This document shows, in pieces, positions 1,335-11,923 of a DNA stretch of 21,836 nucleotides; the first letter of the stretch is position 1, and the number at the start of each line of letters is the position of its first letter. This DNA is from a virus. The notes below the pieces were generated by a model, which was given only the letters and a program-made list of their open reading frames with translations, was not told the origin of the DNA and ran no database searches. The translations under genes were made by a program, and so were the position numbers. The stretch is taken from positions 1 to 21,836 of IMG/VR virus record IMGVR_UViG_3300009154_000320, one strand, 5' to 3'.

Positions 1335-1832
1335 ATGTCTAAAGATGATGATCTTGTGATCCGTATCGGCACTCCTGAAGATATGGATGAAATGATGGAA
1401 GTTGCCCTTGAAGGGTGTCACGAGAATGGTTTTTTAAATCCAAGCCCAGCAATGCTTGCTTCCGACATCTGGCCAGCATTGATGCAGGACCACGGAATTG
1501 TGGGCATTATTGGTAAAAAGGGCGGCATAATTGAAGGCACTGTTGTCCTTCGCGTTGGCACCATGTGGTACTCAGAAAGTCTAGTTGTTGAAGAGAAGGC
1601 TATCTTCATAAGGCCTGAGTATCGTAGCGCAAAAGGCGGTCGCGCCCGCAAGCTTTGTGAGTTTTCTAAAAAAGTAGCCGATACACTTGGAATACCATTG
1701 ATTATTGGTGTATTGTCCAACAATCGCACTGAGGCAAAAGTTCGTCTATATGAGCGTCAGTTTGGGAAGCCCACTGGGGCGTTTTTCTTGTACGGCGCAA
1801 AAACCGGCGAGTTTTTGAAAACGGAGCATTAA
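1335..1832 (+). CDS. GNAT-family N-acetyltransferase-like protein in the virion module
   Basis: 165 residues. AAGGA lies seven bases before ATG 1335, which follows the previous stop by two bases. The chain starts with the typical GNAT beta1 and helix (LVIRIGTPEDMDEMMEVALE). It then shows a beta strand pair around residues 55-90, an IRPEYRSAKGGRARKL segment at the position of the acetyl-CoA-binding R/Q-x-x-G-x-G/A loop, and a C-terminal beta/alpha unit with NNRTEAKVRLYERQFGKPTG. GNAT-like genes at this position occur in other podophage structural modules, where substrates are unknown. Possible roles are modifying a virion protein or a host target. The fold call is fairly secure, the reaction is inferred. 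Confidence 0.75.
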   Translation: MSKDDDLVIRIGTPEDMDEMMEVALEGCHENGFLNPSPAMLASDIWPALMQDHGIVGIIGKKGGIIEGTVVLRVGTMWYSESLVVEEKAIFIRPEYRSAKGGRARKLCEFSKKVADTLGIPLIIGVLSNNRTEAKVRLYERQFGKPTGAFFLYGAKTGEFLKTEH

Positions 1833-1835
1833 ATA

Positions 1836-4800
1836 ATGGGCGGCAAAACCTCCAAGAGTACACAGACAGTCAGCATCCCGCCTGAGGTGCTTGCGCGTTA
1901 CAATGCCGTTAATGCCCGCGCTGAGGCTGCTGCCAACACGCCATTTAAACAGTATGGCGGAGAGTTTGTCGCCGGTCTTACGGGTTCCCAGCGTCAAGGG
2001 ATGTCTAACATCAATGCCGCTGCAAATATGGCTCAGCCATATTACGGCGCTGCCGGTAGTGCCTTTAACGCTGGCCTCAATCAGGGTCAGGGATATCTTG
2101 GCGAGGCCACTCAGTACGCCCGCGCTGGCGGTCAGAATGTCAACGCAAGTGACATCAATGGCGAAGCTATTAACAAGTACATGTCCCCCTACCTTCAGAG
2201 CGTCTTGCAGGGCACTGCCGGTTTGCTTAACCAGCAGAACCAGCAGGCGATGTCTGGCCAGACGGGCAATGCCATTCGTCAGGGAGCTTTTGGCGGTGAT
2301 CGTGGCGGCATTGCCGCTGCAAACCTTCAGCAACAACAGCGCCTTGCCGACTCATCGATCTTTAGCAACATCCTCAATCAGGGCTATAACACTGCGCTGA
2401 ATACGGCTGTTGGCCAGCAGGGCGTCAACCTTGCCGCAGAGCAGGCAAACCGCGCAGCAACGCAAGCGACTGCCGACCGCATTGCTGGCTTGGGCCAGCA
2501 GGGCTTTAACCAGTACACCGCGACTGGTCAGAATGTTCAGGGCCTTGGCACAGCAGCCCAGAACGCCGCCATTCAGGGTGGTCAGGCGCAGATGGGTGCT
2601 GGCGCTGTCGAGCAGGCCACCAATCAGGCTGAAGATACAGCCCGGTACAACCAGTTTAAGGAAGAGCAGTCCTATCCATTTCAGGTTGGTCAGTACTTGG
2701 CGAACATCGCTGAGGGTACTGGCGCACTTTCCGGATCGACAACGACGACAGCCCAGCCGGGCGGCTTCTTCTCAGATGCGCGCCTCAAGGAAAACATCGA
2801 AAAGGTCGGCAAGACCTATGATGGCCAGCACATCTATCGCTACAACTACAAGGGTGACCCAACAACGCAGATCGGCCTGATCGCACAGGAAGTTGAGCGC
2901 CATCACCCAGACGCCGTTGGCTCTGCCGGTCACTATCGTACGGTCGATTACGACAAGGCGACGGATCACGCCGCTGATCGCGGCCACTTCTATGCAGGCG
3001 GCTTGGCAAGCATGGGCGGCAGCGTTGACCCAATGCAGGCTGGTCAGGGCTTTGCTGAAGGCGGTCTGGCTGGTTATGACCCCTCTTACATGGCGGAATT
3101 GTACAAGCAGCTTTACGCTGCTGGCACGGGTCACGGCATCAACGGGATGCAGGGCATTCCTGTAACGCCTTCCGAAATTCATGAACTGATGGTCGCAAAG
3201 GGCCTTCAGGGCGATTCCACAAATAAAGTCACTCAGGCTGTCGATGCCATCGACTCAGTCGGGCAGCTTGGCAACACCCTTGGCGCTTGGCATTATGGAG
3301 AGAAGGAATCCCCTCGCCGTCATCCAATGGATGAGCGCACAGGACATGCTTTTGGCGGTGACATTGAAGACCCGGAAGCCAAAAAGCAGGTCGAAGAAGC
3401 CGGTCTTGCAAAGGCCGCTCTGGAGGCAAGCAAGCCAGAACCGCAGGCTGGTGGCCTCTCCGCCCCCGCACCCGCTCCTACAGCGCCGGTCAAGATTGAA
3501 GCACCAAAGGCAGACCTGAAGTTTGGCGACGCAGCGCCGACGCATAAGCTTGCCGTGGCCAATGCCCCCGTCAAGCCAACCAATCACGGCTCCCAGACAA
3601 TCGATGACTTTGGCAAGCTTGTGGATATCGGGGCCAAAATAGCTGGCGGCATGAACCAAGGCGGTCGCATCTACCGCGACCTTGGCGGTGGGATGCCTTA
3701 CTCAAACGACCAGAGCATCGTGCCCCAGCAGGACGCCCAGCAGCATCAGCTTATGACCGCTCAGGGCATTGGTTCTGGTGGCGGCGGCGCTGGGAAGGCC
3801 ATTGGCTCAATTGCAGGACTGGCATCTAGCCTCATCCCCGGCGGCGGGATCGTCAAGAAGGGTCTTGGCGCTATTGGCAAGCTTTTCTCTGATGAGCGCA
3901 TGAAGGAAAATATCCGCCCAATCGGTGAGCTTTTTGATGGCCAGAAGGTCCACAGCTTCAATTACAAGGGTGACCCCCGCACTCAGATCGGCCTGATCGC
4001 TCAGGAAGTTGAGCATCACAGCCCGCATGCCGTTGATCACGATCACGGCATGAAGACCGTAGATTATCACGACGCAACGCAGCATGCAGCGCATCGTGGC
4101 CACTTCGCTCAGGGCGGCATGCCTGATAAGCGGATGAATGAAATTCTAGCCTCATTGCGGAATGAAATTAATCCCATGTCCAGCTTGTCCGGTCTTGCTC
4201 AGGAGCAGGACATGGAGCTTCGTCGCAATTTGCACCCCGGCAATGCGTCTGAAGAGCGCCTTGGCGGTCTTCGCCCAATGCCGCCAGCCGTTTTCCCCAA
4301 AGGCGCAGAGAAGCCAGTTTCGGGCTTTGGGAACCCTGAGGGCCTTGCAAAAGCTGCAAATAACTTCTCCGGTCCAGTTCCTAAAGGTTTGGACTCTGAG
4401 GTTGTTGAATTTTTCCGCAATAAGGGTCTTTCTGAAGATCAGGCCCGTGGAATTGCTGCTGGCATCGTGGCGGAAAGTGGCGGAAACCATATGGCGGTCA
4501 ACCCGACCAGTGGAGCAATGGGACTTGGCCAATGGCTGGGTCCGCGCAAACGGGCGGTTGTTGCAAAGTATGGAGAAAACCCATCTAAGGATGAACAGCT
4601 TGAGCATCTTTGGAGTGAGCTTACTGGCGGAGATCGCGGTGGCTCCAAGGTTCTAGAAAAAGAAGATGCTTATTCTGTTCTAAATTCATACATCAACGAC
4701 TTTATGCGCCCCGCCAAGGGGCATGAAACTGAAAGCGATATCTCCCGTGGCCGGAAGGCTTTGGGATACGCATCCGGGGGGCTTGCTGGCCGTCATGGAT

Positions 4801-6332
4801 ATGATGACGGCGGATCGCCTGATTTTCATCCTGTTTCGCAAGCTGATGCGGATGAATATGCGCGCACACACAATGAGGATGGATCGCCAAAGGAGGCCGC
4901 AAATCAGAACCAAGCACTTGGTGCCGCCCAGCTACGTGGCACCCCCTCAATCGTAACGCAGCCACCTGCGACAAGCGATATTACAGTTTCTAGCCAAAAT
5001 CCCCAGCCCATATCCTTTGGCAGGAATTTGATATCGGATACTACCCCGCCTGCCACTGCCCCTACTGCTACTCCGGCCCCAGAAAAGAAGGCAGGCTTGG
5101 TTCAGCGTATGTTTGGATATGACCCAGAGCATCCTTATGAGCGCGGAATTGATCCTGAAACAAAAATGCCAAAGGACAACAACTTCTTCCACCGCCTTGG
5201 GCATGGCGAAACGGATGCCGTCCTTTCTGCGCTCAAGGGCATTGCCGCTATGGGCGCAGCGCCAACACGCAGTCTTGGCGTAGCCTTGGCGACCGGCCTT
5301 GGCGCGGGTGTTGACGCCTATCAGGGGCAGCGTGAGTTTGGTCGCCAGTTGCGCGAAACAAGCGCAGTTGAGACCAACGTAGAGGCCAATGCGCGTCGTG
5401 CCGCTGCCGACGTGGCCACAGCAGAATTTAACCTCAAGGAGCTTCCCGGAAAAATTGCTGGCTGGCGTCAGATCGCACAGAAGGGTGGGCCAAATGCCGC
5501 CCTCGCCGCTCAGACTGCCGCGACCCTTCAAGGCATCCTTGATCGGGCCACAAACACCTTGAGTGGCGGGCTGAAAGCGGAGGCTCCATCTCCTGCACCG
5601 GCAGAAAGCGCCGCGACAGAAGCTCCGGCAGGAGGTCTCAACCCCCCTGCCACTACGCCGTCTGCGGCTCCAACTACCGCATCTGGCGTGAAGCCGGGGA
5701 CAGTGGGCAACTTGTATGAAGACCTTGCCTTCCAATCCCTTGCTGGCATCCCAACAGGCTCATTGGAAAAGCAAATTGGAATGGCTGAAAAGGGCTATTT
5801 GCAAGACGCGAACGGCAATTGGAAACAGGACCCAACCTTCACCTCAACGCAGCTTGCAGTTGAGGGCGCGCCGCAGCGGCAGCGCGAGAGCATCACTACT
5901 GATGTCAACATTGGGCAGGAAATCTACAACAACGCAATCGCAGACAACATCTCCTATCAAAAGGCTTGGCCGATTATCAAGGGCCTTAAACCACTTGGCG
6001 AGGGCGAGGTCCCGACCACCGGACTTATTAGCTCTCTCACAAATGCATTTGGCGCTGCGTTTGGATACACAGAAAAGAAAATGGCGGAAAAGTTTGGCGC
6101 GCAGCCAAACACTAATAGCATTTTGAATGCTGCAAGGGCGGAGGGCATTCCGATTGATCCAAGCGGTGGCATTGCTGGCGTGAATAAGCTTATTTCGGCC
6201 CTGAAAGAAAAGGCCGCATCTGCCTACGTCCGCGCTGAAGCTGCCAAAGCATATGTTGCTAAAAATGGCTACGGACCCGGCATGCAGGCCTACATTGACG
6301 CCACCCTAAAAGCCAACGGCCTCACCCCGTAA
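1836..6332 (+). CDS. Giant multidomain internal-virion/ejection-type protein with two peptidase S74 domains and a muramidase domain
   Basis: 1498 residues, ATG 1836 with GGAG nine bases upstream. Residues 1-312 are Gln/Ala/Asn-rich and helical, beginning with a conserved phage segment (SIPPEVLARYNAVNARAE). A peptidase S74 (intramolecular chaperone) domain starts at S313 with SDARLKENI and K318, and contains GDPTTQIGLIAQEVE. A second copy starts at S685 with SDERMKENI and K690. Around residues 850-975 lies a phage-tail-lysozyme-like domain with IAAGIVAESGGN (probable catalytic E880) and MGLGQW. The rest is low-complexity Pro/Ala linker and helical C-terminus. Double-glycine junctions (YAGGL, FAEGGL, FAQGGM, YASGGL) follow the folded domains. 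Probable role: injected or tail-associated protein that locally cuts peptidoglycan. S74 domains usually sit at tail-spike C-termini, so two internal copies are unusual. Confidence 0.85.
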   Translation: MGGKTSKSTQTVSIPPEVLARYNAVNARAEAAANTPFKQYGGEFVAGLTGSQRQGMSNINAAANMAQPYYGAAGSAFNAGLNQGQGYLGEATQYARAGGQNVNASDINGEAINKYMSPYLQSVLQGTAGLLNQQNQQAMSGQTGNAIRQGAFGGDRGGIAAANLQQQQRLADSSIFSNILNQGYNTALNTAVGQQGVNLAAEQANRAATQATADRIAGLGQQGFNQYTATGQNVQGLGTAAQNAAIQGGQAQMGAGAVEQATNQAEDTARYNQFKEEQSYPFQVGQYLANIAEGTGALSGSTTTTAQPGGFFSDARLKENIEKVGKTYDGQHIYRYNYKGDPTTQIGLIAQEVERHHPDAVGSAGHYRTVDYDKATDHAADRGHFYAGGLASMGGSVDPMQAGQGFAEGGLAGYDPSYMAELYKQLYAAGTGHGINGMQGIPVTPSEIHELMVAKGLQGDSTNKVTQAVDAIDSVGQLGNTLGAWHYGEKESPRRHPMDERTGHAFGGDIEDPEAKKQVEEAGLAKAALEASKPEPQAGGLSAPAPAPTAPVKIEAPKADLKFGDAAPTHKLAVANAPVKPTNHGSQTIDDFGKLVDIGAKIAGGMNQGGRIYRDLGGGMPYSNDQSIVPQQDAQQHQLMTAQGIGSGGGGAGKAIGSIAGLASSLIPGGGIVKKGLGAIGKLFSDERMKENIRPIGELFDGQKVHSFNYKGDPRTQIGLIAQEVEHHSPHAVDHDHGMKTVDYHDATQHAAHRGHFAQGGMPDKRMNEILASLRNEINPMSSLSGLAQEQDMELRRNLHPGNASEERLGGLRPMPPAVFPKGAEKPVSGFGNPEGLAKAANNFSGPVPKGLDSEVVEFFRNKGLSEDQARGIAAGIVAESGGNHMAVNPTSGAMGLGQWLGPRKRAVVAKYGENPSKDEQLEHLWSELTGGDRGGSKVLEKEDAYSVLNSYINDFMRPAKGHETESDISRGRKALGYASGGLAGRHGYDDGGSPDFHPVSQADADEYARTHNEDGSPKEAANQNQALGAAQLRGTPSIVTQPPATSDITVSSQNPQPISFGRNLISDTTPPATAPTATPAPEKKAGLVQRMFGYDPEHPYERGIDPETKMPKDNNFFHRLGHGETDAVLSALKGIAAMGAAPTRSLGVALATGLGAGVDAYQGQREFGRQLRETSAVETNVEANARRAAADVATAEFNLKELPGKIAGWRQIAQKGGPNAALAAQTAATLQGILDRATNTLSGGLKAEAPSPAPAESAATEAPAGGLNPPATTPSAAPTTASGVKPGTVGNLYEDLAFQSLAGIPTGSLEKQIGMAEKGYLQDANGNWKQDPTFTSTQLAVEGAPQRQRESITTDVNIGQEIYNNAIADNISYQKAWPIIKGLKPLGEGEVPTTGLISSLTNAFGAAFGYTEKKMAEKFGAQPNTNSILNAARAEGIPIDPSGGIAGVNKLISALKEKAASAYVRAEAAKAYVAKNGYGPGMQAYIDATLKANGLTP
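2847..2898 (+). repeat. First copy of an in-gene repeat (S74 domain core)
   Basis: A 52-base segment encoding YKGDPTTQIGLIAQEVE is nearly identical in DNA to 3963-4014. The similarity extends more weakly over the whole S74 domain, implying an internal domain duplication. Confidence 0.85.
3963..4014 (+). repeat. Second copy of the in-gene S74 repeat
   Basis: Encodes YKGDPRTQIGLIAQEVE. It differs from 2847-2898 mainly in the bases encoding the PTT/PRT residues and one third-position change. Confidence 0.85.
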
Positions 6333-6343
6333 GGATCGCACAG

Positions 6344-8566
6344 ATGGCTGAAAAAACTGCACTTCAAGGTATTTGGGATACGATCACCGATCTAACCCCT
6401 CACACCTCAGACACATCCAAAGGTCCACCAACAGGCCAGCGGAGGACTGTGCCAGCGCCTGAGTTAAATGCTGCCGACGCAGCAAAAAACGTGGCACTTA
6501 ATCTGATCGATCCACGCCAGTGGTATCGCACGTTCCAGAACACGATCACCGCCATCCCAAGCCTCTTTAACGGAGAGGCGGCATCTGGAATAACAGGGGC
6601 GTATATTGGTAAGCAAATAGCTGAGCGGCGGGCGCAGAAGCTTGATGTTTCACCAAACTGGTATCGCAATAATATTTTGATTCCTCGCGAAAGGAAAAAT
6701 TATAGCGATAAGCAAATCAATGACATGATGCAGGACTCGACCGCAAAGTGGAACGTCCTCTCTAACAATTTCTCATACGTTGATCCTAAAACAAGGCAGC
6801 GCACAGTGGACTGGAATGCAATCAACCATAGGTTGGTTGAAAATCCTGCTGATATTGTCTTAATGTTTAGTGGTCTTGGCGAAGTGGGTGCGGCTGGGAA
6901 TCTGGCCCGCCTAGCTAAGGCTGGCCGCATTGGGGAGGGCGCTGATGTTCTTTCCAATGCGGGAAAGCTGTCCCGCAAAATTCAAACTGGTAGCCGCTTG
7001 GCCAGCATCGCCGCCGATCCTCTAACCGCTTTAGCAGTTGGTGCTGGCACAAAAGCACTTGTTCGTGGCACCGACATCGCCCGGCGCTCAATAACAAATC
7101 CTGTCACTTCAATCCTAGACCCTAATTATGTGACGGCATTTGAAAAATATAAAGCCGACATGGTTGACGATATGGTCGCCAATCGTGGCTACTCCACTAG
7201 GCAGGCTAACCAGTGGGTAAATCAAAACAAAGATAATATGTTTTACGAATTTAACGCTCAAAATGGCGGGCGTTTTAGCAATCCATATAACCGCGAAACG
7301 ACAGCGATGTTTGCGGCTCAGGGGAAGGACCCCACCGCATATGGTGCGCCAAGCATTTACAATCGTGTAAACCAAAACTTTAACCGCTCCGGCGGTCCTA
7401 GCGCCCCAGCCCTTCGTCAGGTAACCCTTGAGGCTGGACAAGTTGCCAACCCCCGCCGTAGCTCAACCACATTTCAAGCTGCGCCCCCTTTGCTTGCCCA
7501 GAATGAAAAAAACTGGATTGCAAAGCAGCAGGGGAATTTGACAAGTCAACTCAATGATCGGCTGTCTTCCAATTATCCCGGACAGCAATTTGATTTTGGA
7601 GCTTTAACAAGGCCAACGGACCCTGTTAATGGCAGCACAGTTGGCGATTTTGTTTATCGCCCAGATGGAGGTTGGCACTCAGCTTCCGGTCATCGCGTTG
7701 GACCCTCTTTGCAGCCCGCCCTCACCGACCAATTTCGGGCACAGAACCCAATTCCCAATATCAGCCCTGCTGATCTTGATTTTGTCCGCCGCAATCGCGC
7801 AGCAAACTCTGATTTGGGTCAGGCATATGACGTAATTCCTCCCGCCCAATCAGTCGGAGAGCGCGCTTATAGCGCCGCTAAAAGCGTTCTCAGGCCACTT
7901 GGTAGCGCCGCAAGCATGTTTTACATGACCGGAAGTCCTCACCTTGCAGGGGCGGCAGGGGCTTTGGCGGCGGGCAAAGACATTGCCACCGGAATAAAGA
8001 CTGGAAAATCTTATCTTGACGAGATTTCCGGCAACCCATTTGTCTATAATCCCAATAACCCATTTTTGAAAAATGACATCTTACTGCCTCGCAGCTTGGT
8101 GCAGGGTGCTTCGGCTGTTGTGCCCAACCCAATTAAAGTGCAACCTCAGCCGCCTCAGCAAAGGCAAGCGCCTCGCCCCGTTGCGCCCGCGCCTGCCGTT
8201 GTTGAAAGTCGCGAGGCAATGAGGCTTCCTGAATTGAAGCAGGAAAACCAGACGCCTGTGCCAATGCAGTCAGAACCCCTTGCACCGAAAAAGTATGATC
8301 TTTCTAGTTATGGTATTGGCCAAGAGGCATTGGAGCCGCAAAAGATGGACCTTTCAGAATATGGCATGCAACCCCGCAGGCAGGGAGGTCGCATCGCTTA
8401 CAAGAAGGGTGGCGCGGTTAAGTCTGGCATTGAGCCATTGGTTCAGAGCCTCATGGCGCGTTACAAGGCCGTCAAGCGGTCGCAGGACAGCGGAACAAAG
8501 CCTTTGCTGCAACAGCCGGATCAGGCTATTGTAAAGGCCTTAGGTGTGGCTCAGAAGGCGATTTGA
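6344..8566 (+). CDS. Internal-virion-type protein (probable ejection protein), 740 aa
   Basis: ATG 6344 is preceded by TAAGGA, with AAGGA eight bases upstream. Residues 1-330 are mostly helical and include an Ala/Gly-rich, moderately hydrophobic segment (NPADIVLMFSGLGEVGAAGN and LASIAADPLTALAVGAGTKA, about residues 165-240) that could interact with membranes. The middle is Asn/Gln/Pro-rich. Near the C-terminus, KYDLSSYGI and KMDLSEYGM form a short repeat. These are followed by QGGRIAYKKGGAVK (GG at 681-682 and 689-690) and a helical tail ending LLQQPDQAIVKALGVAQKAI. I have seen tails of this type (LLN.PDE..AKAL..A) in other alphaproteobacterial podophages. With the preceding giant protein it probably forms the internal or ejectosome set, by analogy with T7 gp14-16. 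That role is inferred from position and composition. Confidence 0.75.
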   Translation: MAEKTALQGIWDTITDLTPHTSDTSKGPPTGQRRTVPAPELNAADAAKNVALNLIDPRQWYRTFQNTITAIPSLFNGEAASGITGAYIGKQIAERRAQKLDVSPNWYRNNILIPRERKNYSDKQINDMMQDSTAKWNVLSNNFSYVDPKTRQRTVDWNAINHRLVENPADIVLMFSGLGEVGAAGNLARLAKAGRIGEGADVLSNAGKLSRKIQTGSRLASIAADPLTALAVGAGTKALVRGTDIARRSITNPVTSILDPNYVTAFEKYKADMVDDMVANRGYSTRQANQWVNQNKDNMFYEFNAQNGGRFSNPYNRETTAMFAAQGKDPTAYGAPSIYNRVNQNFNRSGGPSAPALRQVTLEAGQVANPRRSSTTFQAAPPLLAQNEKNWIAKQQGNLTSQLNDRLSSNYPGQQFDFGALTRPTDPVNGSTVGDFVYRPDGGWHSASGHRVGPSLQPALTDQFRAQNPIPNISPADLDFVRRNRAANSDLGQAYDVIPPAQSVGERAYSAAKSVLRPLGSAASMFYMTGSPHLAGAAGALAAGKDIATGIKTGKSYLDEISGNPFVYNPNNPFLKNDILLPRSLVQGASAVVPNPIKVQPQPPQQRQAPRPVAPAPAVVESREAMRLPELKQENQTPVPMQSEPLAPKKYDLSSYGIGQEALEPQKMDLSEYGMQPRRQGGRIAYKKGGAVKSGIEPLVQSLMARYKAVKRSQDSGTKPLLQQPDQAIVKALGVAQKAI

Positions 8567-11147: not shown

Positions 11148-11315
11148 ATGACTGGCAATCTCTCAACCATCGAACTGATCGGGCAGCTTTGGCCGCTCGT
11201 TCTTGGCTTCATCTCTTTGGTCATCGTCTTAGCTAAGATGGATGTGCGCCTTGCCGTGGTTGAGGAAAAGATCAAGACGCTCTTTGAATTGTGGAATAAA
11301 GGCAAAGACAAATGA
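11148..11315 (+). CDS. 55-aa single-helix membrane protein of the lysis cassette (holin/antiholin candidate)
   Basis: The small gene starts at the ATG immediately after the previous stop (TAAATG) and ends with ATGA overlapping the endolysin start, so it fits the coupled chain exactly. The product has a short N-terminus, one membrane helix at about residues 12-29 (GQLWPLVLGFISLVIVLA), then an amphipathic charged helix (MDVRLAVVEEKIKTLFELW) and a basic end. It could be a holin, an antiholin or an XhlA-like partner of the two-helix protein. It is short but well supported by gene packing and by a coherent membrane topology. Confidence 0.72.
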   Translation: MTGNLSTIELIGQLWPLVLGFISLVIVLAKMDVRLAVVEEKIKTLFELWNKGKDK

Positions 11316-11923
11316 GCATGATTGAACTTCAGAAAAAGATCGGAGTGTCAGCAGATGGTGCGTTTGGTCCGGGAACATTTAAGAAAGCTGCGTCTTACTA
11401 TAAGCTGTCTCCCAATCGCGCTGCACATTTTTTTGCTCAAACGGCACATGAAAGCGGTGGCTTCAAGACGTTCAGCGAAAACCTTAATTACAGCGCCAAA
11501 GGGCTTCGCGACATCTTTGGCAAATATTTCACGACTGACCTCATGGCTCGTCTTCACGAGCGCCAACCACAGAAAATCGCTAACCGCGTCTACGCTAACC
11601 GCATGGGAAATGGACCTGAAAGCAGCGGAGACGGATGGAAGTATCGTGGACGTGGAGCACTCCAGCTAACCGGCAAGGATAACTATGAAGCCTTTGCAAA
11701 CTATATCGGTCGCCCCGACATCATGTCCAACCCTGATCTGGTTTCTGGCGAACTCTGCTTTGAAAGCGCGCTCTGGTTCTTTGACAAAAACAAGCTCTGG
11801 CCAATCTGCGACCAAGGCGTCAACGACGCCGCCATCCTCGCTCTGACAAAGCGCATCAACGGCGGTACGCATGGCCTTGATGACCGCAAGGCCAAGACGA
11901 AGAAATACGCAACGTGGGCCTGA
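11312..11923 (+). CDS. Endolysin, glycoside hydrolase family 19 (chitinase-like) with short peptidoglycan-binding-like N-terminus
   Basis: 203 residues, ATG 11312 overlapping the previous stop. Residues 1-35 (LQKKIGVSADGAFGPGT) resemble half of a peptidoglycan-binding repeat. The catalytic domain shows AHESGGF with the probable general acid E47, and SENLNYSA with second glutamate E56. It also has YRGRGALQLTGKDNY at 111-125 and a C-terminal TKRINGG segment, all hallmarks of phage GH19 endolysins. It would cleave the glycan strands of peptidoglycan. No signal peptide or anchor is seen, so it needs a holin for export. It overlaps the Rz gene by ten bases. Confidence 0.92.
   Translation: MSMIELQKKIGVSADGAFGPGTFKKAASYYKLSPNRAAHFFAQTAHESGGFKTFSENLNYSAKGLRDIFGKYFTTDLMARLHERQPQKIANRVYANRMGNGPESSGDGWKYRGRGALQLTGKDNYEAFANYIGRPDIMSNPDLVSGELCFESALWFFDKNKLWPICDQGVNDAAILALTKRINGGTHGLDDRKAKTKKYATWA

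What the first reader, a model, noticed from the sequence alone, without database searches (positions are those of the whole stretch)
1836..6332. Two peptidase S74 auto-chaperone domains buried inside a 1498-aa virion protein that also has a muramidase domain
S74 domains normally cap the C-terminus of trimeric tail spikes and cut themselves off just before the conserved serine. Here two copies (starting S313 with K318, and S685 with K690) lie in the interior of an internal-virion-type protein, upstream of a lysozyme-like domain (E880). Both keep the S-D-x-R-x-K motif and G-D-P-x-T-Q-I-G-L-I-A-Q-E-V. If both cut, one gene yields three pieces: 1-312, 313-684 and 685-1498. That would make it a self-processing polyprotein of the ejection apparatus. 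If not, the domains are being used as structural modules.
Basis: partly seen in the sequence, partly recalled or inferred. Interest (0 to 1): 0.55.

Follow-up and report, generated by a model that had tools for sequence, protein, structure and literature searches.

The report
Fused phage ejection protein, two S74s
A large phage protein thought to be injected into bacteria carries two shortened copies of a self-cutting domain usually found at the ends of tail spikes; the cutting site is fully preserved but the part that normally makes the domain trimerise is gone, so whether it still cuts is open but easy to test.

Summary
ORF 1836-6332 (1498 aa) has two Peptidase_S74 domains (S313/K318, S685/K690) and a Phage_lysozyme2 domain (E880). 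It is not an oddity of one phage. Residues 1-374 align end to end with PHROG 4287 'DNA ejection protein', whose S74 is C-terminal. In sequenced relatives (phiGT1, NYA-2014a, EBPR podovirus 2, Ochrobactrum OH) that protein is a separate gene next to the peptidoglycan-hydrolase gene; here the two positions are one ORF. Among 50 complete N-module proteins found without using S74, 7 have no S74, 29 have one and 14 have two, with at least 15 copy-number changes on a tree. The S74 is a compact form: 0 of 153 interior copies keep room for the alpha4 coiled coil that drives trimerisation (and thereby cutting) in MyRF, against 35 of 46 other S74s. Yet Ser and Lys are invariant (153 of 153), and most other MyRF cleavage-pocket positions are retained. 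Self-cleavage is therefore plausible, about even odds, but unproven. The stronger 'three-piece self-processing polyprotein' claim is weaker, because S74-free relatives exist and in split relatives S74 has nothing to separate. New variant of a known kind.

The parts
1836..6332 (+). 1498-aa fused ejection protein (ejection module + S74 + linker + S74 + lysozyme + C-terminal region)
1836..2729 (+). N-terminal Gln/Ala-rich ejection module (aa 1-298), predicted all-helical
   Evidence: PHROG 4287 'DNA ejection protein' aa 1-374; AlphaFold2 helices 16-33, 50-100, 109-148, 156-192, 199-298
2730..2771 (+). linker ending ...TTTTAQPGGFF just before S313 (aa 299-312); putative cut between F312 and S313 (2771/2772)
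   Evidence: pLDDT <50 for aa 299-310; residue before Ser is F in 88 of 110 aligned copies
2772..2963 (+). S74 copy 1 (aa 313-376), dyad S313/K318, compact form
2964..3002 (+). short helix remnant in place of alpha4, then Gly-Gly (aa 377-389)
   Evidence: predicted helix only 372-381; G/P-free run statistics
3804..3887 (+). Gly-rich hydrophobic segment before copy 2 (aa 657-684); putative cut between F684 and S685 (3887/3888)
   Evidence: copy-2 upstream mean hydropathy 0.97 vs -0.17 for copy 1
3888..4079 (+). S74 copy 2 (aa 685-748), dyad S685/K690, compact form
4080..4118 (+). same short tail RGHFxxGG after copy 2 (aa 749-761)
4398..4736 (+). Phage_lysozyme2 muralytic domain (aa 855-967), putative catalytic E880
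   Evidence: E 6e-12
1335..1832 (+). upstream acetyltransferase-like gene, same position as in split-gene relatives
   Evidence: PHROG 1249; neighbours
6344..8566 (+). downstream 740-aa protein, position of the second internal virion protein
   Evidence: last 56 aa match the next gene of MW202675 (phmmer E 8.5e-5); function inferred from position

Best explanation
The ORF is a fused podovirus-type ejection protein. An N-terminal ejection module that in other phages is a stand-alone protein ending in S74 is joined to the muralytic ejection protein normally encoded by the next gene (shown by homology for the first part, by position and domain content for the second). The S74 copies are a compact class: the beta-rich core and Ser-Lys active site are kept, the trimerising alpha4 coiled coil is lost (shown by sequence and prediction). 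My most likely mechanism, inferred: each cassette grips the hydrophobic stretch just before it (FF or LF, then Ser) and, once the ejection proteins oligomerise during head assembly, cuts the chain before S313 and perhaps S685, leaving a free ejection module and a muralytic fragment. In split-gene relatives the same reaction would only trim a C-terminal cap of about 65 residues, so release of the N-module's hydrophobic end, not separation of two enzymes, is the likelier original role. The cassette is dispensable over evolution.
For: S and K invariant in 153 of 153 unique N-module copies, with both Ser codon families in use (150 TCN, 3 AGC). In an overlapping set of 113 unique copies S, D and K are 113/113, R+3 106/113, Q 108/112, and the position matching MyRF Y615 is Tyr or Phe in 113/113. 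In MyRF S587A and K592A abolish cutting and R590A, Y615A, Y617A, Q639A impair or misdirect it; window counterparts in copy 1 are S313, K318, R316, Y336, Y338, Q351 and in copy 2 S685, K690, R688, F708, Y710, Q723 (alignment). Hydrophobic residue before the Ser in 147 of 152 interior copies (32/33 first, 31/34 second, 84/85 single). Full-length match to PHROG 4287. Gene order acetyltransferase - S74 protein - hydrolase - internal virion protein in phiGT1, with similar layouts, and 4-base ATGA overlap of the S74 and next genes in phiGT1, OH and NYA-2014a. MyRF shows an interior S74 can cut.
Against: No alpha4 coil in 153 of 153 interior copies, while in MyRF coil mutations block trimerisation and cutting. 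Upstream of copy 1 is predicted alpha-helical with a disordered linker, not a triple beta-helix. 7 of 50 complete relatives do without S74, and copy number changes at least 15 times on the tree. Three second copies (L175, L054, L082) end at 52-57 aa and one (L068) at 35 aa, yet keep S and K, so retention of the dyad does not prove activity. The hydrolase half shows no convincing BLAST or phmmer match to the split hydrolases. No experiment on any member was found.
Confidence: 0.5

Rival explanations
1. The S74 cassettes do not cut. They are compact folded beads in a long ejection protein, used as structural or docking modules between the ejection module and the muralytic part; Ser and Lys are kept for folding or by common descent.
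For: Loss of the trimerising helix in all interior copies; repeated loss and gain of whole cassettes; truncated second copies that still carry the dyad; S74-free fused relatives.
Against: Both Ser and Lys invariant in 153 of 153 together with most of the MyRF cleavage pocket is more than a spacer needs; the hydrophobic residue just before the Ser is conserved across different upstream contexts.
Confidence: 0.4
2. The gene is a true self-processing polyprotein: both copies cut in every chain to yield 1-312, 313-684 and 685-1498 as three virion proteins, replacing separate genes.
For: Copy 1 sits where split relatives have the end of the first gene; both copies keep the dyad.
Against: The middle piece 377-684 matches no stand-alone gene that I found; in split relatives the gene boundary lies after S74, not before it; S74-free and single-copy relatives keep the fusion.
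Confidence: 0.22
3. The second copy is a relic of duplication on the way to loss.
For: Copy-number changes are frequent; four second copies are truncated.
Against: Window copy 2 is full length, 42.3 bits with intact dyad; second copies of near relatives form a supported group of 9 rows (96), so the duplication is not recent.
Confidence: 0.12

Closest known systems
PHROG 4287 / 6121: podovirus DNA ejection protein with C-terminal S74 (phiGT1_17, Ochrobactrum OH_p40, NYA-2014a SUFP_020, EBPR podovirus 2 gp27)
   Same: Same N-module (PHROG match), same compact S74 with S-D-x3-K dyad, same gene neighbourhood
   Different: There S74 ends the protein; here it is interior, present twice and fused to a muralytic half
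Myelin regulatory factor (MyRF) ICA domain, PDB 7dc3
   Same: Interior S74 with the same dyad and pocket; top Foldseek/VIA match
   Different: MyRF has an alpha4 coiled coil and a beta-helical stalk and is shown to cut; here both are absent and cutting is untested
Endosialidase / T5 L-shaped fibre / neck appendage intramolecular chaperones
   Same: Pfam PF13884 core and SDxRxK
   Different: Those are C-terminal, trimeric, follow a triple beta-helix and are cut off (passages of PMC8326128); here interior, coil-less, after alpha-helices
MW202675.1 'internal virion protein D' (1185 aa) and uncultured-phage UniProt entries 'Intramolecular chaperone auto-processing domain containing protein' (e.g. 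A0A6J5LD05, 1487 aa)
   Same: Same kind of long protein with an S74
   Different: MW202675 has one S74 copy and an SLT transglycosylase in place of Phage_lysozyme2; the UniProt entries were seen only as fold-search rows
P22 gp7/gp16/gp20 and T7 gp14/gp15/gp16 ejection proteins
   Same: Inferred role: ejected with DNA, one member muralytic in T7 (passages)
   Different: The word S74 does not occur in the ejection-protein review searched; P22 gp20 may need cutting by a host enzyme (passage)

Membership tests
Pfam PF13884 Peptidase_S74 (sequence family) | Profile score above curated cut-off | tested here: met
   43.1 and 42.3 bits vs 22
Pfam PF13884 Peptidase_S74 (sequence family) | S-D-x-R-x-K motif | tested here: met
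   both copies
Trimerising intramolecular chaperone / ICA domain (endoNF, MyRF type) | S74 core fold | tested here: met
   copy 1 only; PDB match is top-ranked but weak
Trimerising intramolecular chaperone / ICA domain (endoNF, MyRF type) | C-terminal alpha4 coiled coil | tested here: not met
   0 of 153 interior copies have a G/P-free run of 21 or more after the core; 35 of 46 other S74s do; predicted helix 372-381 only
Trimerising intramolecular chaperone / ICA domain (endoNF, MyRF type) | Beta-helical stalk upstream | tested here: not met
   helices then disordered linker before copy 1 in the predicted model; copy 2 not modelled
Trimerising intramolecular chaperone / ICA domain (endoNF, MyRF type) | Autocleavage before the Ser | not testable with these tools
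   needs protein
Trimerising intramolecular chaperone / ICA domain (endoNF, MyRF type) | Trimer formation | not testable with these tools
   only single-chain prediction was available
DNA ejection protein (PHROG 4287) | Full-length profile match | tested here: met
   aa 1-374 vs 4-385 of 392, E 6.9e-23
DNA ejection protein (PHROG 4287) | Gene order of ejection genes | tested here: met
   window acetyltransferase upstream
DNA ejection protein (PHROG 4287) | Present in virion and ejected | not testable with these tools
   needs virions
Phage_lysozyme2 (PF18013) | Profile score and catalytic Glu | tested here: met
   46.3 bits vs 28.2; E880 present; its catalytic role is recalled, not tested
Self-processing polyprotein | Proteolysis into separate mature proteins | not testable with these tools
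   needs protein or virions

The most novel reading that the evidence does not exclude
A large phage group uses a coil-less S74 autoprotease, working without the dedicated trimerising helix of the S74 proteases studied so far, to cut a fused ejection protein at one or two sites inside the maturing head, freeing a hydrophobic C-terminus on the ejection module.
Probability: 0.35. Interest if true: 0.72.

Novelty: new variant of a known kind. Interest (0 to 1): 0.47.

Why it matters
If the compact form cuts, trimerisation through alpha4 is not a requirement of S74 chemistry, and a proteolytic step would enter the still poorly understood maturation of phage ejection proteins. If it does not, a large group of proteins called 'auto-processing' or 'tail fiber' in databases is misnamed. 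Either way the preserved active site with a missing trimeriser is a natural experiment that one expression assay can read.

Tried and rejected
Considered and rejected: (1) chance or artefact: two hits far over cut-off and 113 unique relatives. (2) Tail fibre: N-module, neighbours and muralytic domain point to ejection. L012 carries a separate 369-aa ORF with a weak S74 hit (17 bits) followed by a coil-like tail, L004 likewise, a contrast of both S74 types in one phage. (3) S74 evolved to separate ejection module from hydrolase: in split relatives it already ends the first protein.

Led nowhere: phmmer and BLAST of the C-terminal half against split hydrolases. Profile search of solved structures: the best-listed 3pg0 (ThreeFoil) is a short repeat match with no stretch significant on its own and is taken as chance; 6f45, 3gud and 7dc3 follow at E 0.007-0.23. 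Foldseek of the 390-aa model gave only generic long-helix matches; some rows there are toxin structures, matched on helix shape only. The tree of S74 copies is poorly resolved (76 columns; 51 of 110 branches open), so one or several duplications cannot be told apart in the family. Paper searches for S74 in ejection or internal virion proteins listed none by title or abstract start; only passages of five papers and one section of one of them were read.

S74-seeded loci are biased to have S74; only the N-module-seeded set is used for presence/absence. In one search, 8 of 80 ORFs were dropped as duplicates and 22 of the remaining 72 run off a contig end. In one search, 35 of 60 single-copy rows were sampled. 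In one search some of the 37 short-tailed S74s are short only because the contig ends.

Full report
What is there. The ORF at 1836-6332 encodes 1498 aa. Pfam finds two Peptidase_S74 domains and one Phage_lysozyme2 domain; the six-frame search of the 21,836-base virus record places the S74s at nt 2772-2918 and 3888-4034, both about twice the curated cut-off, and finds no third.

What the protein is. PHROGs match residues 1-374 to 'DNA ejection protein' 4287, positions 4-385 of 392, the profile that Ochrobactrum phage OH_p40 (379 aa) fills end to end. In Sulfitobacter phages phiGT1 and NYA-2014a, EBPR podovirus 2, Ochrobactrum phage OH and Rhizobium phage RHph_N2 the S74 protein (326-379 aa) is followed directly by another gene, annotated as or noted to contain a peptidoglycan hydrolase in the first four, and then by further internal-virion-type or unnamed genes; an acetyltransferase-like gene is annotated just before it in phiGT1, OH and RHph_N2. 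In phiGT1, OH and NYA-2014a the stop of the S74 gene overlaps the next start as ATGA. The window has acetyltransferase, the 1498-aa ORF, then a 740-aa ORF. So the ORF occupies the place of both genes. The first half is homologous to the split protein. The second half is not detectably homologous to the split hydrolases, so the fusion is shown for the N-module and inferred by position for the rest. The muralytic domain is swapped between relatives: Phage_lysozyme2 here and in L183 and L158, GH108 in L004 and L012, SLT in MW202675, Hydrolase_2 in L182. A muralytic Pfam domain was seen in 6 of the 21 relatives scanned as whole ORFs; in the other 15 none was found at E 0.01.

How common. Searching with the N-module alone (independent of S74) gave 80 loci; after dropping 8 duplicates, 50 of 72 ORFs were complete at the C-terminus: 7 without S74, 29 with one, 14 with two. 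In S74-free proteins such as L105 the linker runs straight from GSTTTTTTPGGL into the downstream Gly-rich part. On a tree of 68 N-modules (all 9 zero-copy, all 24 two-copy, 35 of 60 one-copy candidates) S74 number changes at least 15 times, and presence/absence at least 6, of which starred branches force 4. The window's copies group with those of L024 and L103.

What the domain looks like. Canonical S74s continue after the V-x-Y strand into a long amphipathic helix (alpha4), visible in many genome-contig hits as LIEAIKEL.... Here the chain goes VDYDKATDHAADRGHFYAGG. Counting the longest stretch free of Gly and Pro that begins within 12 residues of the end of the core, 0 of 153 interior copies reach 21 residues (median 6), against 35 of 46 other S74s with more than 25 residues left (median 29.5); several of the 11 that fall short have an evident but interrupted helix, and three Methylobacterium ones look coil-less. 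A further 37 S74s have at most 25 residues left after the core, some because the contig ends. AlphaFold2 predicts a helix of only 372-381. MyRF alpha4 spans N670-K705, drives trimerisation, and its mutation blocks cutting (PMC8326128, passages; PMC3742443, passages on trimer-dependent cutting).

What is kept. In 113 unique segments S, D and K are invariant, the Arg three after the Ser is 106/113, the Gln of IAQE 108/112, and the two positions equivalent to MyRF Y615 and Y617 are Y65/F48 and Y89/M16/F4/I3/L1. In 153 unique N-module copies Ser and Lys are 153/153; Ser uses TCN in 150 and AGC in 3. The locus patterns did not include the SDxRxK motif, so the invariance is not a product of those patterns, though those did include it and the profile used for detection contains it. 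In MyRF S587A and K592A abolish cutting, and R590A, Y615A, Y617A and Q639A reduce or misdirect it (PMC8326128 section 7). The residue before the Ser is hydrophobic (F, L, I, M, V, W, Y or A) in 147 of 152 interior copies.

Two upstream contexts. Before copy 1 stands a Thr-rich linker ending FF (mean hydropathy -0.17 over 19 residues, n=33); before copy 2 a Gly-rich hydrophobic segment (0.97, n=34), like that before C-terminal S74s (0.70, n=35). In phiGT1, NYA-2014a and EBPR podovirus 2 the S74 also follows such a Gly-rich hydrophobic stretch. I infer that the original job of the domain is to hold and perhaps expose this end, not to part two enzymes.

How it may work. Shown: fused ejection-type protein, compact S74 core, intact dyad, missing coil. 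Inferred: the core grips the hydrophobic residues before the Ser, and oligomerisation of ejection proteins replaces alpha4 in positioning the dyad, after which the chain is cut. I give this about 0.5, a non-cutting structural role 0.4, and obligatory three-piece processing 0.22 (the first and third overlap). The main arguments against cutting are the missing coil, dispensability, and four truncated second copies that keep the dyad.

Known or new. phiGT1's record already notes S74 in the gene phiGT1_17, and UniProt holds long 'Intramolecular chaperone auto-processing domain containing protein' entries from uncultured phages. I found no paper that describes interior or coil-less S74s in ejection proteins in the searches (listings, and passages of PMC8326128, PMC3742443, PMC8954989, PMC10386132 and PMC10883804). 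Proteolysis of ejection proteins is not unheard of: a review says P22 gp20 may need cutting by a host enzyme (PMC8954989, passage). Verdict: new variant of a known kind.

Noticed in passing
L213:5791-6219; L214:5297-5767 and 5788-6216; also L201, L215-L217, L245, L254: Small proteins (142-274 aa) in bacterial contigs, mostly Rhodobacterales by title, with a hydrophobic N-terminal stretch followed by a coil-less S74 that ends the protein; two in tandem in L214.
   Followed up: no
window 4776-4814 (aa 981-993) and family linkers: Recurring Gly-Gly motifs in the linkers, 'GG[LV]AGRHGYxxGG'-like in 60 of 103 proteins and 'GGxV..HAGEGYAxGG'-like in 21 of 103 (69 and 21 matches), against 3 and 0 matches in shuffled sequence.
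   Followed up: partly
window 8396-8563: The C-terminal 56 aa of the 740-aa neighbour match the C-terminus of the next gene in MW202675 while the rest does not.
   Followed up: no
L175, L054, L082, L068 second copies: Second S74 copies cut short before the last strands, yet with Ser and Lys intact.
   Followed up: partly
window 11312-11923: Glyco_hydro_19 endolysin-like ORF, a separate lysis enzyme in the same record.
   Followed up: no
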